Assembly (NCBI GenBank): GCA_028554795.2
Contig: CM068827.1
Location: 74,622,744 to 74,686,743, forward strand
Direction of reading: 5' to 3'
Length of the DNA: 64,000 bases
DNA from: Sinohyriopsis cumingii
Taxonomy: Eukaryota; Mollusca; Bivalvia; Unionida; Unionidae
Shown: positions 3,469 to 58,755 of the stretch, piece by piece
How positions within the stretch are numbered: position 1 is the stretch's first letter
How the letters are laid out: the number at the start of each line of letters is the position of its first letter
Made by a program: the position numbers and the translations under genes
The notes under the pieces: model-generated
Databases searched by the model: none
What the model was told of the DNA's origin: nothing
Seen by the model: the letters and a program-made list of their open reading frames with translations, nothing else

Positions 3469-4363
3469 TTAGTAATATATAGGACAGCATCTAACAGATC
3501 TGGAATTGCTTCCATAAGGGTCGTAAATTCTGCATGGTCCATCTTGCCTCTCTCCATGTAGACAGTACCGCCGGCATGGACAGTCATCAGGGAACAAGCC
3601 TAATAATAATAATAATAATAATAATAATAATAATATTATTATTATTATTATTATTAGTAGTAGTAGTAGTAGTAGTAGTCAGCAGAAAAATAATGAGAAT
3701 AATAATAACAATAGAAAGAATTGAAGAATAAGACGATGAAGATAAAACATTAAGACTAAAATATGAATAAGAAGAAAACGAAACAGAAGAAAAGAAGATA
3801 AAGAAACAGAAGAAAAAAGGTAGAAGAAGAATAAGAGGTACAACATCAATACTTAAAGAAAAAGATAAATCTACTCTTGTTGTTACATTCGATTATGTTC
3901 GAATTTCCCTCGTTATTGCGTTGTTTCCGACTTATCTGCCTCGATATATTAAGCTTGAAACATTTGAATTCTCACATTCGTTTCTCTATTCGAAATTTCA
4001 ATATAAATTGAGGTGATAGTTCTTTCGACAATTCTGATTAGAAGAAGAATGTTGATTATCATGTACATCATATTCAAAATAAAGACGATCATGACGACGT
4101 TTCGGACAACGAAGAAACTGATTATATCAATCATTTGTAAAAGAATGATAGGTATATTTTGTCTCGTAGTCAGGTCGACGATATTGTTCACACTAGGAAT
4201 AAAAGTAAAGATAAATGAATGAGGGAAGATCGCAAATATGGTAATGTAAAAGAAATCATGTAACATTCGTATCACTAAGATCATAATTACCTTGAGCTGC
4301 AGAGAAGTGGATGACCATCAGACTGCAAACGAGGAAAAAGATAAAGATGGATGCCTTTGACAT
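3469..4363 (-). CDS. Six-cysteine secreted peptide, copy A (intact)
   Basis: Two coding exons: 4363-4291 (73 nt) and 3599-3469 (131 nt), split by a 691-bp phase-1 intron (GT at 4290-4289, AG at 3601-3600). The product is 67 residues. Residues 1-24 are a signal peptide (MSKASIF, a hydrophobic core, then HFSAAQ), probably cleaved near Ala23. The mature part of about 44 residues has six cysteines spaced C-x1-C-x3-C-x9-C-x14-C-C, the conserved text YDPYGSN, and ends PIYY. Net charge is about +1. A TATA box lies 61 bp upstream of the ATG. A likely 3' UTR intron (donor at 3452) starts 16 nt after the stop and leads to the terminal exon at 1344. The CxC start, C-x9-C spacing and final CC recall beta-defensin-like folds, but the last loop is longer and I recognise no family. 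It could be a defence, signalling or venom peptide; function is unknown. Confidence 0.8.
3600..3670. repeat. (AAT)n/(ATT)n/(AGT)n microsatellite at the intron 1 acceptor, copy A
   Basis: On the minus strand the tract reads as ATT repeats that run directly into the TAG acceptor of the peptide gene. The usual pyrimidine tract is replaced by the repeat. Outside it lies an A- and G-rich purine stretch (about 3670-3850) on the plus strand, which is pyrimidine-rich on the coding strand and may serve splicing. Confidence 0.9.
3851..4290 (+). other. Intron 1 interior with antisense open-reading remnants
   Basis: Read on the plus strand, opposite to the gene, this intron carries a stretch similar to VTFDYVRIS and LETFEFSHSF. 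It recurs in the introns of B, C, D and E. It is interrupted in A but open for 148 residues in D. I do not recognise it. Confidence 0.35.
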
Positions 4364-4423
4364 CTTTGCTTTGTTTTAATTGTAACAATTGAGCTTGAAT
4401 AGTTGTTAGTACACGCTAAATTG

Positions 4424-4432
4424 CTATTTATA
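4424..4432 (-). promoter_or_regulatory. TATA box of peptide gene A
   Basis: TATAAATAG on the minus strand, 61 bp from the nearer edge of the box to the ATG. Flanking text (CCGGGATTTC upstream, CAATTTAGCG downstream) is also kept in B, C and E, with TATAAATAG or TATAAATAA at the same spacing. This fits a core promoter with a 5' UTR of about 35-40 nt. Confidence 0.75.
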
Positions 4433-4439
4433 CAAGAAA

Positions 4440-6150
4440 TCCCGGAACGACATGGCTTAGCATATATTATGGCGAGGTAGGGATTGTTTCAAGGAAATGG
4501 CTTTGAGTATTGACTACTTGAAAATATTATGTGTCCGTATTTTTTTATAAAAATGAACGTGTCAGTACATCAATGTGGCATGTTGGACTGTCATGTAATT
4601 CAACTAGATCCGGTACCATAACAAAGGCATCATTACTTATGTAGTACGTACTGAAGCCGTCGTCAGGCCCTTTTAGTGTTCTTTTCCGAAGTGCAGGCAA
4701 TATAATTCTCTATATAAATATTTATAATCATTAAGTTATGAAACTTGTTCATTTAAGATGTGAGGAATGTGAAGGTTTATAATGTGATAAACTATATAAC
4801 AGATTGTTAAATTTGATCAGATTTCTGAAGTAAATGATACTTGGTAACTTAGAATCGTAACCGTTGAATTCCATTCATCATATTAAATTTGATCGGCATC
4901 CCCTTCAAAATATGGAAAGTGTAATGTTCATTTAAATGTTGAAACCATCTGAATGATTTTATAATATGCCCAAAATGTAAGATTAATAGGAAAATTATTG
5001 TTCAAAATAAAGACTACTTTTTGTTATGCCAATACGTCCGATATGAAGGTTTATCCCATAAAACCGTGAAACAATCAACAAATTGAGTGACTGTAATGTT
5101 TCTCCTGAGATGTGAATACATCTATGGTTTTGAAATGTCAGTTAGATCTTAGAATACAAATTGTCCCAGTTTAAAAAATAGATTTGTATATACAGTAAAC
5201 CAGAGATTAATTACATACATAATTTTTGGGGTGTGAACAAATTCCTGTCTGCGTGTCATATAATTCATGCATTTCTACATACGTAATTTATGGGGTGTGA
5301 ACAAATTCCTGTCTGCGTGTCATATAAATCAATGCATTTCTACATACGTAATTTATATATCTTCAAAGCAAGAAAATGATTGTTAAGTAAAACTAAAATC
5401 ACAATTCAAATTTCTTTAACTAGTATGTATACTTTGAAATTAAAGAAAGATGATGAATAATACATGTTATAGTTTACATTACTCTCATACGTTTGAGATA
5501 TGCTCTTTTTTTATTGCGGAGAAATAAATCCACAAATGTACTTGACGATAATGGTTGTCTCCATTTACCGGCAATATGTGAATCGTTCTATATTAAATGC
5601 TATGCGGTTTATTTATATATAATCTAAATGTATTTGTATCTTCATCTATGGGAATATTCTCTCTCTGTCTTTAATATATATCGCATCAATAAACGAACGG
5701 TAGATCAAACATTGTGAAATTTTCATAGCACTGCTATTTCTACTAATAACCACAGCTGATGAGATTTATTAACCTATACCTGCAGGGTTACTAATTAACA
5801 AGATAAAAAAATACGAATTAGAGACAATAAAGATGTCCCACTTTAGTAAAGGATGTGGAAGGACAGCACACATTTAAAGCCTTGATTTATTTACCTAATT
5901 ACCATGTGCAGAATACCTGGAAAAAAAGGTAATGTTATTGTTCATATTGTTAAGATGTGATATACAGCTAGCCAGGCATACATAAATCTAGATGCAGGAT
6001 CCCATTTACAAAGTGTTCCTAACGTTACTTGGAAACTAATAACTGCTTCAAATGATTCGTGGCACAATGAACGAGTAGTTACGTAAACTGGAATACTTAT
6101 TTAAAAACTCTTTTAATTTTGTACTTTCATATCCAATAAATGCTTTTCTT
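4440..6150. other. Upstream flank of peptide gene A, no gene seen
   Basis: AT-rich sequence shared with the same position in units B-E (for example GGCAATATAA and AAGTTATGAAACTTGTTCAT). It includes the short tandem duplication at 5226-5350. No coding signal is visible. It may contain promoter-distal control elements, but nothing specific can be named. Confidence 0.5.
5226..5350. repeat. 64-bp tandem duplication
   Basis: The text GGGGTGTGAACAAATTCCTG occurs at 5228 and again at 5292, with matching flanks, giving two copies of a 64-bp unit. Unit B has one copy at about 17271, so the doubling is specific to A. Confidence 0.85.
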
Positions 6151-56850: not shown

Positions 56851-57434
56851 AATGAAAAAGAGACTGAAGGAGGGGAGGGGAGAGAGAGGGTGTAAAATCT
56901 TGTATTGAACATTTAAAAAGTCCAGAAAAAATAAGGAAAACACAGAGTCATGTCAAGATTCAAAGCATGGTAAGAAATGCCACCACTTGCGATGTATACT
57001 TTAATCCATGCTTAATTAAATACTTAAATTGATGGTCGAGTGGTTACTTTAATGAAACTGGAAGGTTTGTTCCATAAACCACGCAAGCGTAATAGTTAAA
57101 CAGATACTTAAGGGACAGTAATTACGACTATATCATTTGAACTTTAAATGAGTTTCTAAATTGCCACAAAGTGCTGAATACTGGGCAACATTACGTTATA
57201 TCGAAAGGTCTCCGAAACCAAAGAAAAAAAATGTCTGAAACGTATATCCGTTAATCTCGTTCCCAGATACAGCAAAAAAGACAGAAGAAGAGAATTCCAT
57301 ACAATGGAAACATACAAATGAGCAAATTTCTCACAATCCTTTACAGCTTCAAAGAAAATGGTTGATATAATTTTATACGACAGTATTACTTTATTCTGTT
57401 TTGGAACTAATTAAGGAGAAGAAAAAGAGATTCA

Positions 57435-57505
57435 ATTTATTTCACAAGCGCTTTATTTTCACTTTTCAATATTCACAGCTACATCAAGGATTTTGAATGT
57501 GTCAT
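57435..57505 (-). terminator. Terminal non-coding exon and poly(A) signal of peptide gene E
   Basis: Acceptor TTTTCTTCTTTCAG with AG at 57507-57506, exon from 57505, AATAAA at 57457-57452. The 3' UTR intron is 586 bp. Confidence 0.6.
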
Positions 57506-58107
57506 CTGAAAGAAGAAAAGGACATTTTCGCTTTAACTTAATCGCATCCTCTATTTGTAACCATATATTAATAATAAGCATGCATAAATGTGAAGAAAAT
57601 ATGAATCGAAATGTTACCTGAAACATGAATACCTACACCATATGTACAATTGATATAAATACACTTAAAACACACAAGAAAGGCTGATACTATATGTCTT
57701 GTCCATTCATAAAGAGGGGAGGTTTAACGCCAGTTAAACGGCACCTGTATTCAATACAAGACAAAAACTTAGCAAAAGGTGTAAAAACAAGTTTACTGTT
57801 TGTATTATCATGGGTTTAATAATCACAGTGGTTACTTTAGGCTACAAAATCCAAAACTCATTTTATGTAAATAATTTTGAATCTACTCCAGGAGTACATT
57901 ATTAAGGTCATGTAAGCTTATTTGAACAGATTCAAAACGACGAATGGCTTATCGGCAAGGGCGGTAAATCAAGATTTGGATACTTTAAACAGGTTCTCTT
58001 GAATTTGTTTTAAAGAAGCGTGTTATCAGTTGTAGGAAGCGTGCTGTGCCAATACTGCAATAAGGTTGAAAGAAAAAGCCAGGTTGCTTACCATAGAGAT
58101 TTTAGTT

Positions 58108-58755
58108 TCAGTAATATATAGGACAGCATCTAACAGATCTGGTATTGCTTCCATAAGGGTCATAAATTCCGCATGGTCCAGCTTGCCTCTCTCCATTTAA
58201 ACAGTACCGCCGGCATGGACAGTTATCAGGGAACAGACCTGACAATAATAATAATAATAATAATAATGATAATAATAATAAGAAGAAGAAGAAGAAGGAG
58301 AAGAAGAAGAAAATACTACTACAACGAAGAATAAGAATTATATAAGGAGGCGATGAAGAAGACAAATCATAAGAAGCAGAAGAAGAGTAAGAACAAATTA
58401 AAGACAAACAAAAGCAACAAGTAAGAAAACCTAAATTTATTAAACCGACTCTAGATGTGACATTGGATTCTGTTCGTGTATCCCTCTTTACTGTTTTGCA
58501 CCTGATTTATCAGCAACGATATATCAAGTTTGAAACGTTTGAATTCTCATACTGGTTTAACTATTTACTTCTCTTACAGCAATGTAAATGTAACGATAGC
58601 CAGATAAATGAAGATGATAATTATGGTAATAAAAAGACGCCTCAAAATCATGGAATAGTCGAATCATTAAGATCATAGTTACCTTGAGCTGCAGTGAAGT
58701 GGACGACCATCAGACTGCATACGAGAAAAACTATAAAGATGGATGCCTTCGACAT
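58108..58755 (-). CDS. Six-cysteine secreted peptide, copy E (intact)
   Basis: Coding exons 58755-58683 (73 nt) and 58238-58108 (131 nt), with a 444-bp phase-1 intron, the shortest of the family (GT at 58682-58681, CAG acceptor with AG at 58240-58239). The product is 67 residues: a 24-residue signal peptide beginning MSKASIFIVFLVCSLM, then a mature part with C-x1-C-x3-C-x9-C-x14-C-C and the ending PIYY. Its exon 2 differs from copy A by five amino-acid changes and four silent ones, all sparing cysteines; net charge is about +2. TATAAATAA lies at 58824-58816. The 3' UTR donor at 58091 is again 16 nt after the stop. It shares TGA and the CTATGG donor context with B; A and C share TAA and CTACGG. 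Function is unknown. Confidence 0.8.
58239..58320. repeat. (AAT)n and (AAG)n microsatellite at the intron 1 acceptor, copy E
   Basis: On the coding strand a CTT run and then ATT repeats lead to GTCAG, the acceptor. Here a TTGTCAG separates repeat and exon, a more ordinary acceptor than in the other copies. Confidence 0.9.

What the first reader, a model, noticed from the sequence alone, without database searches (positions are those of the whole stretch)
3469..58755. Tandem family of apparently undescribed six-cysteine secreted peptides
Five head-to-tail minus-strand copies (exon pairs at 4363/3469, 16427/15466, 31891/31108, 46079/45148, 58755/58108) share a two-exon design: a 24-residue signal peptide exon, a phase-1 intron, and a C-x1-C-x3-C-x9-C-x14-C-C exon. 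Splice phase agrees across all copies, and the three intact copies keep every cysteine while nearby residues vary. The CxC start and terminal CC recall beta-defensin-like folds, but the 14-residue loop fits no family I know. Net charge near zero is unlike a classical cationic antimicrobial peptide.
Basis: partly seen in the sequence, partly recalled or inferred. Interest (0 to 1): 0.92.

Follow-up and report, generated by a model that had tools for sequence, protein, structure and literature searches.

The report
Mussel peptides patterned like mammalian alpha-defensins
A genome, probably of a freshwater mussel, carries a tandem array of small genes for secreted six-cysteine peptides whose key residues match those of alpha-defensins, immune peptides described so far in mammals.

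Summary
Five minus-strand copies lie in ~12-16 kb tandem units: signal-like exon, phase-1 intron, C-x1-C-x3-C-x9-C-x14-CC exon. Copies 1, 2 and 5 are intact; copy 3 lacks an AG acceptor; copy 4 is a pseudogene. The array runs past the window, with one more intact, divergent copy (65% identical in the cysteine exon) and degenerate ones. The same 67-residue product is annotated, unnamed, in two unionid mussels of different subfamilies, so the host is probably a unionid.

It is not without relatives. The first four cysteines have alpha-defensin spacing. All nine residues invariant in mammalian alpha-defensins (six Cys, Arg, Glu, Gly) sit at the same offsets in 7 of 7 sequences. Pfam Defensin_1 and Defensin_beta_2 match below cut-off. 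PDB profile searches return mostly alpha- and beta-defensins with non-significant E-values (drosomycin too in two of three); shuffled controls return nothing. [quoted passage not shown] The 14-residue last loop, missing propiece and sub-cut-off scores rule out filing it as an alpha-defensin. Best reading: an undescribed trans-defensin-like host-defence family. Structure prediction failed; expression and activity are untested.

The parts
4291..4363 (-). copy 1 exon 1: signal-like leader, 24 codons + 1 nt; TATAAA at 4427-4432
   Evidence: GT donor
3469..3599 (-). copy 1 exon 2: six-cysteine mature part, intact; AG acceptor; AATAAA 101 nt after stop
   Evidence: query
16355..16427 (-). copy 2 exon 1: leader
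   Evidence: GT donor, TATAAA 68 nt before ATG
15466..15611 (-). copy 2 exon 2: all six cysteines, 5-residue insertion near the C-terminus; intact; AG acceptor; AATAAA 104 nt after stop
31819..31891 (-). copy 3 exon 1: leader
   Evidence: GT donor, TATAAA 69 nt before ATG
31108..31238 (-). copy 3 exon 2: all six cysteines, open, but the intron ends in AC (acceptor lost); predicted splice-defective
46007..46079 (-). copy 4 exon 1 remnant: no ATG, internal stop, donor lost, no TATAAA
45150..45278 (-). copy 4 exon 2 remnant: terminal Cys-Cys replaced by Ser-Ser; pseudogene
58683..58755 (-). copy 5 exon 1: leader
   Evidence: GT donor, TATAAA 69 nt before ATG
58108..58238 (-). copy 5 exon 2: six-cysteine mature part, intact; AG acceptor; no AATAAA/ATTAAA within 250 nt after stop
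743..60626 (-). tandem units (start-to-start spacing 12.0-15.6 kb) carrying copies 1-5; pieces shared between units are mostly 64-82% identical; the array continues beyond the high end of the window

Best explanation
These are genes for secreted, disulfide-rich host-defence peptides of freshwater mussels that belong to, or closely imitate, the trans-defensin superfamily (alpha-, beta- and big defensins). A two-exon gene behind a TATA box makes a precursor of about 67 residues. Signal peptidase removes the exon-1 part and leaves a mature peptide of about 43 residues with three disulfides. Shown: gene anatomy, conservation, cysteine spacing, the Arg-Glu-Gly set at the alpha-defensin offsets, homologues in two other mussels. 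Inferred: secretion; a three-stranded defensin sheet braced by an Arg34-Glu41 salt bridge and a Gly45 bulge (copy 1 precursor numbering), with a longer hairpin made by the conserved YDPYGS..R.VR segment between Cys4 and Cys5. Action at mucus or haemolymph surfaces on microbes is likewise inferred, probably by binding or trapping rather than by cationic membrane lysis, since net charge is only 0 to +2. The array evolves by tandem duplication and decay, as big-defensin clusters do.
For: Homologues of the same spliced length, 87% and 84% identical to copy 1, in two unionids of different subfamilies. Nine alpha-defensin invariant residues (six Cys; Arg at C2+1; Glu at C3+4; Gly at C4-2; PMC9872612 passages) invariant in 7 of 7 mussel sequences, splice-defective copy 3 and divergent copy 9 included; chance of R, E and G at those three places by shuffling one peptide 0.05-0.15% (five peptides). 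Published alpha-defensin spacing C-X1-C-X3-4-C-X9-C-X6-10-CC (PMC515299 passages). Pfam Defensin_1 in 4 of 7 (best E 0.006) and Defensin_beta_2 in 3 of 7 (best E 0.004), below cut-offs; 0 of 10 cysteine-preserving shuffles of copy 1 match any family. PDB profile of five of the seven sequences: 6 of 6 hits at E up to 10 are defensins, five alpha (three of them neutrophil defensin 1 variants) and one beta, E 0.25-3.7; 0 hits in 3 of 3 column-shuffled profiles. [quoted passage not shown] Conservation peaks at exons and TATA region. dN/dS over the whole coding region below 1 in 10 of 10 pairs of copies 1, 2, 3, 5, 9 (0.26-0.90), one-sided p < 0.05 in 5 of 10, lowest p = 0.001 for copies 5 and 9, uncorrected.
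Against: No Pfam match to these peptides reaches its curated cut-off, one of the two homologues (P0002, full length) matches no family at all, and no PDB match has E below 0.2. AlphaFold2 with six very similar sequences failed: mean pLDDT 48.9, pTM 0.17, so the fold is unsupported. The last loop (14) lies outside the published alpha (6-10) and beta (4-7) ranges. In the mature part alone dN/dS is 0.33-1.07 and no pair has p below 0.1. Between copies 1 and 2, exon 2 (0.885) is no more conserved than the start of the intron (0.890). Drosomycin, a cis-defensin, appeared in two of three real-profile PDB searches; Sod_Ni matched weakly in Pfam in 2 of 7 and sodN in NCBIfam in 1 of 6. No expression data could be examined. 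Low charge is atypical for a membrane-active peptide.
Confidence: 0.66

Rival explanations
1. Derived big defensins: the peptides are non-canonical, N-terminally truncated descendants of a bivalve big-defensin gene that kept the phase I intron and the cysteine exon, as described for Ruditapes philippinarum; the alpha-like CxC arose later by shortening the first loop. This is a statement of origin and is compatible with the best explanation.
For: PMC7203481 (sections read) describes such genes in Ruditapes (phase 1 intron kept) and Dreissena, and two big-defensin genes in the freshwater mussel Venustaconcha ellipsiformis; the gene design here is the same.
Against: First loop is 1 residue, not the 4-8 of beta-type arrays. 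In this genome Defensin_big has no match over its cut-off (best E 1.6). Defensin_beta has one match over its cut-off (23.6 bits, E 0.23, contig C12), but its frame has no terminal CC; none of the nine loci from these two searches has a CC in the match frame. No control genome gave a true positive, so absence is not shown.
Confidence: 0.5
2. Unrelated disulfide-rich secreted peptide (signal, pheromone, gamete or mucus component) whose cysteine spacing and Arg/Glu/Gly match alpha-defensins by chance.
For: Low charge; the strongly conserved YDPYGS segment was not matched in the defensin hits; sub-threshold scores; failed fold.
Against: Shuffled controls match no defensin while the real sequences do so repeatedly and in register; phase I intron in the defensin position.
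Confidence: 0.23
3. A decaying gene array with no remaining function: apparent conservation only reflects recent duplication or gene conversion.
For: Six of the ten gene-like units found in the array are broken or remnants (copies 3, 4, 6, 7, 8, 10); mature-part dN/dS is not significantly below 1; exon 2 is not better conserved than the intron start between copies 1 and 2.
Against: Over all five copies the exons and TATA region are more conserved than most of the unit; copy 9 is 65% identical in exon 2 yet keeps all cysteines and splice sites; intact homologues are annotated in two unionid subfamilies.
Confidence: 0.09

Closest known systems
Mammalian alpha-defensins (Pfam PF00323; e.g. PDB 2k1i mucosal alpha-defensin, 3lo1 neutrophil defensin 1)
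   Same: CxC start, spacing x1-x3-x9 from C1 to C4, terminal CC, Arg at C2+1, Glu at C3+4, Gly at C4-2; hydrophobic leader
   Different: Last loop 14 instead of 6-10 residues; no propiece between leader and mature part; a mollusc; scores below the family cut-off
[quoted passage not shown]
   Same: Phase I intron directly before the six-cysteine exon, tandem clusters with duplication and pseudogenes, bivalve hosts, charge reported to vary
   Different: No N-terminal hydrophobic domain and no prodomain; CxC instead of a beta-defensin-like first loop; no Pfam match of the peptides to PF14862
Vertebrate beta-defensins (PF00711, PF13841)
   Same: x3 and x9 loops in range, terminal CC, phase I intron; sub-threshold PF13841 match over C2 to C4
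   Different: First loop 1 instead of 4-8, last loop 14 instead of 4-7
Invertebrate (cis, CS-alpha-beta) defensins
   Same: Six cysteines, x3 and x9 loops in range; drosomycin appeared in two profile searches
   Different: Consensus ends C-x1-C, not CC, with first loop 5-16 and last loop 4-7

Membership tests
alpha-defensin | Spacing C-X1-C-X3-4-C-X9-C up to the fourth cysteine | tested here: met
   x1, x3, x9 in six of six sequences and in copy 9; consensus from PMC515299
alpha-defensin | Last loop X6-10 followed by CC | tested here: not met
   14 residues in the same seven sequences; CC present
alpha-defensin | Nine invariant residues: six Cys, Arg-Glu salt-bridge pair, Gly of the beta-bulge | tested here: met
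   Same offsets as Arg9, Glu17, Gly21 of cryptdin-14 (PMC9872612 passages); invariant in 7 of 7
alpha-defensin | Disulfides 1-6, 2-4, 3-5 on a three-stranded sheet | not testable with these tools
   AlphaFold2 model unusable (pLDDT 48.9); second job not accepted
alpha-defensin | Propiece between signal and mature peptide (recalled, from no call) | tested here: not met
   Cysteine exon follows the leader exon directly, 67-residue precursor
alpha-defensin | Score above the family cut-off (PF00323, 21.4 bits) | tested here: not met
   16.3 bits in copy 1; 4 of 7 members match at E up to 10, best E 0.006
beta-defensin | Spacing C-X4-8-C-X3-5-C-X9-13-C-X4-7-CC | tested here: not met
   First loop 1, last loop 14; consensus from PMC515299
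beta-defensin / big defensin | Phase I intron at the 5' end of the cysteine-rich region | tested here: met
   Intron after the first base of the codon six codons before the first cysteine; feature from PMC7203481
big defensin (canonical) | N-terminal hydrophobic domain and prodomain with dibasic site | tested here: not met
   No room for them in the 67-residue precursor; precursors give no PF14862 match
non-canonical big defensin | Descent from a big-defensin paralogue | not tested
   No big-defensin sequence of this genome was recovered to build a tree
trans-defensin superfamily | Six cysteines ending in CC with defensin-type core residues | tested here: met
   profile hits in the PDB mostly alpha- and beta-defensins, shuffled controls none
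trans-defensin superfamily | Three antiparallel strands with three disulfides | tested here: inconclusive
   AlphaFold2 model of low confidence
cis-defensin (invertebrate) | C-X5-16-C-X3-C-X9-10-C-X4-7-C-X1-C | tested here: not met
   First loop 1, last loop 14 and adjacent final cysteines; consensus from PMC515299

The most novel reading that the evidence does not exclude
A mollusc lineage has built an alpha-defensin-type peptide: CxC start, Arg-Glu brace, Gly bulge and terminal CC on a phase-I-intron gene. Alpha-defensins are held to be restricted to a few mammals. Either the alpha architecture arose twice from trans-defensin ancestors by shortening the first loop, or it is older than mammals. 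The conserved long YDPYGS hairpin would then be a new functional tip on the defensin scaffold.
Probability: 0.4. Interest if true: 0.8.

Novelty: new variant of a known kind. Interest (0 to 1): 0.62.

Why it matters
Alpha-defensins are described as identified only in a few mammals (PMC7203481). An invertebrate family with the same spacing of the first four cysteines and all nine invariant residues would be an independent test of what makes an alpha-defensin: the spacing, the salt bridge and the glycine. It would also show that trans-defensins in molluscs go beyond the big-defensin and beta-like forms described in that review. [quoted passage not shown]

Tried and rejected
Family search of this genome with mammalian defensin PF00323 gave nothing, but no control genome rang either, so it is uninformative. 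tRNA and Rfam scans of the window: nothing. NCBIfam: only sodN, weakly, in 1 of 6. Pfam on four full precursors also gave noise: Asp-B-Hydro_N (E 0.12) and Defensin_RK-1 (E 1.2), both for copy 2. PDB search with a single sequence: nothing; only profiles gave hits. AlphaFold2: unusable model, so no fold search was made. Defensin_big and Defensin_beta searches of the genome: nine loci, match frame of each translated; none shows a six-cysteine exon ending in CC; one search had looked at one strand of seven loci only, one search repeated it for nine of nine on both strands. A cephalopod host, my first guess (search), was dropped when the only homologues were unionid. Idea of a mobile element: only 11 matches in 2.9 Gb, eight of them within about 90 kb; such counts are lower bounds, and that search missed copy 7, seen only in the fetched flank. 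Literature: 10 searches; the listings (titles and starts of abstracts, cut at 8-20 of up to 1,676 papers) showed neither this family nor an invertebrate alpha-defensin. [quoted passage not shown] the protein searches found no named one, but they need shared 5-residue words.
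Full report
What is there. On the minus strand of the window lie five copies of a small two-exon gene, one per tandem unit of about 12-16 kb. Copy 1 shows the design: a TATAAA box 69 nt before the ATG, exon 1 of 73 nt encoding a hydrophobic leader, a phase-1 GT-AG intron of 691 nt, exon 2 encoding a 43-residue six-cysteine part, and an AATAAA 101 nt after the stop. Copies 2 and 5 are also intact, except that copy 5 has no AATAAA or ATTAAA within 250 nt. Copy 3 has an AC at the intron end. 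Copy 4 is a pseudogene by several defects. The cysteine pattern occurs four times in the six frames of the window, in copies 1, 2, 3 and 5.

Is it more than duplication? In an alignment of the five units the two exons and the TATA region stand out. Between copies 1 and 5 the exons are 90% and 92% identical while the first 300 nt of intron and of downstream flank are 52% and 57%; between copies 1 and 2, by contrast, exon 2 (88.5%) is no better conserved than the intron start (89.0%). dN/dS over the whole coding region is below 1 in 10 of 10 pairs of copies 1, 2, 3, 5 and 9 and nominally significant in 5 of 10. The signal comes mainly from the leader: in the mature part alone it runs 0.33-1.07 and is significant in none of 10. 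The pairs are not independent and the p-values are uncorrected.

The wider array. A six-frame search of the 2.9-Gb assembly gave 11 matches to exon 2: the five copies in the window; three more within 30 kb beyond its high end; one with a stop on contig C257; one with a stop at 135.6 Mb of contig C4; and one probably chance (E 2.7). In 70 kb of fetched flank, 20 kb below and 50 kb above the window, nothing significant lies below; above lie copy 6 (truncated exon 2), copy 7 (broken, missed), copy 8 (broken), copy 9 (intact: GT-AG, TATAAA, AATAAA, all cysteines; 65% identical to copy 1 in exon 2) and copy 10 (leader remnant only, weak). Four of ten units are intact: copies 1, 2, 5 and 9. A search with copy 9 gave 10 matches, all already known except one with E 0.75 and a stop.

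Host and homologues. Among 5.8 billion proteins two match, 67 aa each, both the full spliced product: Sinanodonta woodiana ACJMK2_044206 and Potamilus streckersoni CHS0354_014365, named hypothetical protein. Both are Unionidae, of the subfamilies Unioninae and Ambleminae. The assembly size, 2.90 Gb, is near the 2.80 Gb of Anodonta (Sinanodonta) woodiana (PMC12048480, abstract and annotation section). The window is therefore probably from a unionid; the species is not determined.

What it resembles. Xiao et al. 2004 (PMC515299, passages) give alpha-defensins as C-X1-C-X3-4-C-X9-C-X6-10-CC; here it is C-X1-C-X3-C-X9-C-X14-CC. The paper on mouse cryptdins (PMC9872612, passages) lists nine invariant residues of mammalian alpha-defensins: six Cys, an Arg-Glu salt bridge and a Gly in a beta-bulge, at C2+1, C3+4 and C4-2. 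All nine are invariant in the seven mussel sequences compared. Pfam gives sub-threshold matches to Defensin_1 in 4 of 7 and Defensin_beta_2 in 3 of 7, and to Sod_Ni in 2 of 7; 10 of 10 shuffles that keep the cysteines match nothing. A profile of five of the seven (copies 1, 5, 9 and the two homologues) finds 6 PDB sequences at E up to 10, all defensins: five alpha, of which three are variants of one human peptide, and one crocodile beta-defensin. Three column-shuffled versions of that profile find none. The six- and seven-sequence profiles found 3 of 4 and 6 of 7 alpha- or beta-defensins, the other hit each time being drosomycin. None of these E-values is significant alone (best 0.2); the argument rests on the controls and on the register.

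Gene structure points the same way. Gerdol et al. 2020 (PMC7203481; abstract, sections 3, 7, 9, 10 and 14 and further passages read; [quoted passage not shown] The genes here have the phase I intron and no hydrophobic domain. I found no canonical big defensin in this genome: Defensin_big gave nothing over cut-off; Defensin_beta gave one match over cut-off with E 0.23 whose frame lacks the terminal CC. These searches lacked a working positive control and run exon by exon, so absence is not shown. Big-defensin transcripts are reported in a unionid (PMC7838317, passages).

Mechanism. Most likely the leader is removed on secretion and the oxidized peptide folds as a small three-stranded defensin. 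The invariant segment YDPYGS..R.VR between Cys4 and Cys5 would make a longer hairpin than in alpha-defensins. With a net charge of 0 to +2 I expect binding or aggregation on microbial surfaces rather than simple membrane lysis. Fold, pairing, expression and activity are inferences. AlphaFold2 gave no usable model.

Verdict. Observation confirmed with corrections. Membership: fails alpha-defensin on the last loop, propiece and score; fails beta-defensin on two loops; fails canonical big defensin on domain content; fits the trans-defensin superfamily by sequence, with the fold untested. I class it as a new variant of a known kind.

Noticed in passing
intron ends of copies 1-5 (minus strand, just above 3600, 15612, 31239, 45279, 58239): The introns end in an ATT/TTA microsatellite at, or in copy 5 within a few bases of, the 3' splice site instead of a usual pyrimidine tract; in copy 3 the AG next to the repeat is lost. 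Repeat slippage might switch copies off.
   Followed up: partly
34029-34631 (+): Open frame with a reverse-transcriptase domain (PF00078, E 3e-20), a retroelement fragment between copies 3 and 4.
   Followed up: no
4394-4543 and counterparts upstream of the other copies: A stretch about 30-180 nt before the ATG is conserved to 0.82-0.86, including TATAAATA and, in copies 1, 2, 3 and 5, a CTTGAA.CAATCCCT block; possible shared regulatory sites.
   Followed up: partly
L007 (contig C257) and L008 (C4:135.6 Mb): Two related exon-2 pseudogenes with a shared HEPYQSNYRSVRC variant lie away from the array, suggesting an older second lineage of the family.
   Followed up: partly
20241-20540 and 21024-21323: Two direct copies of 300 nt, 92% identical, 783 nt apart, next to long simple repeats.
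   Followed up: no
L020 (contig C16): Weak Defensin_big match (E 2.9), a short hydrophobic frame followed by stops; chance or a big-defensin relic.
   Followed up: partly
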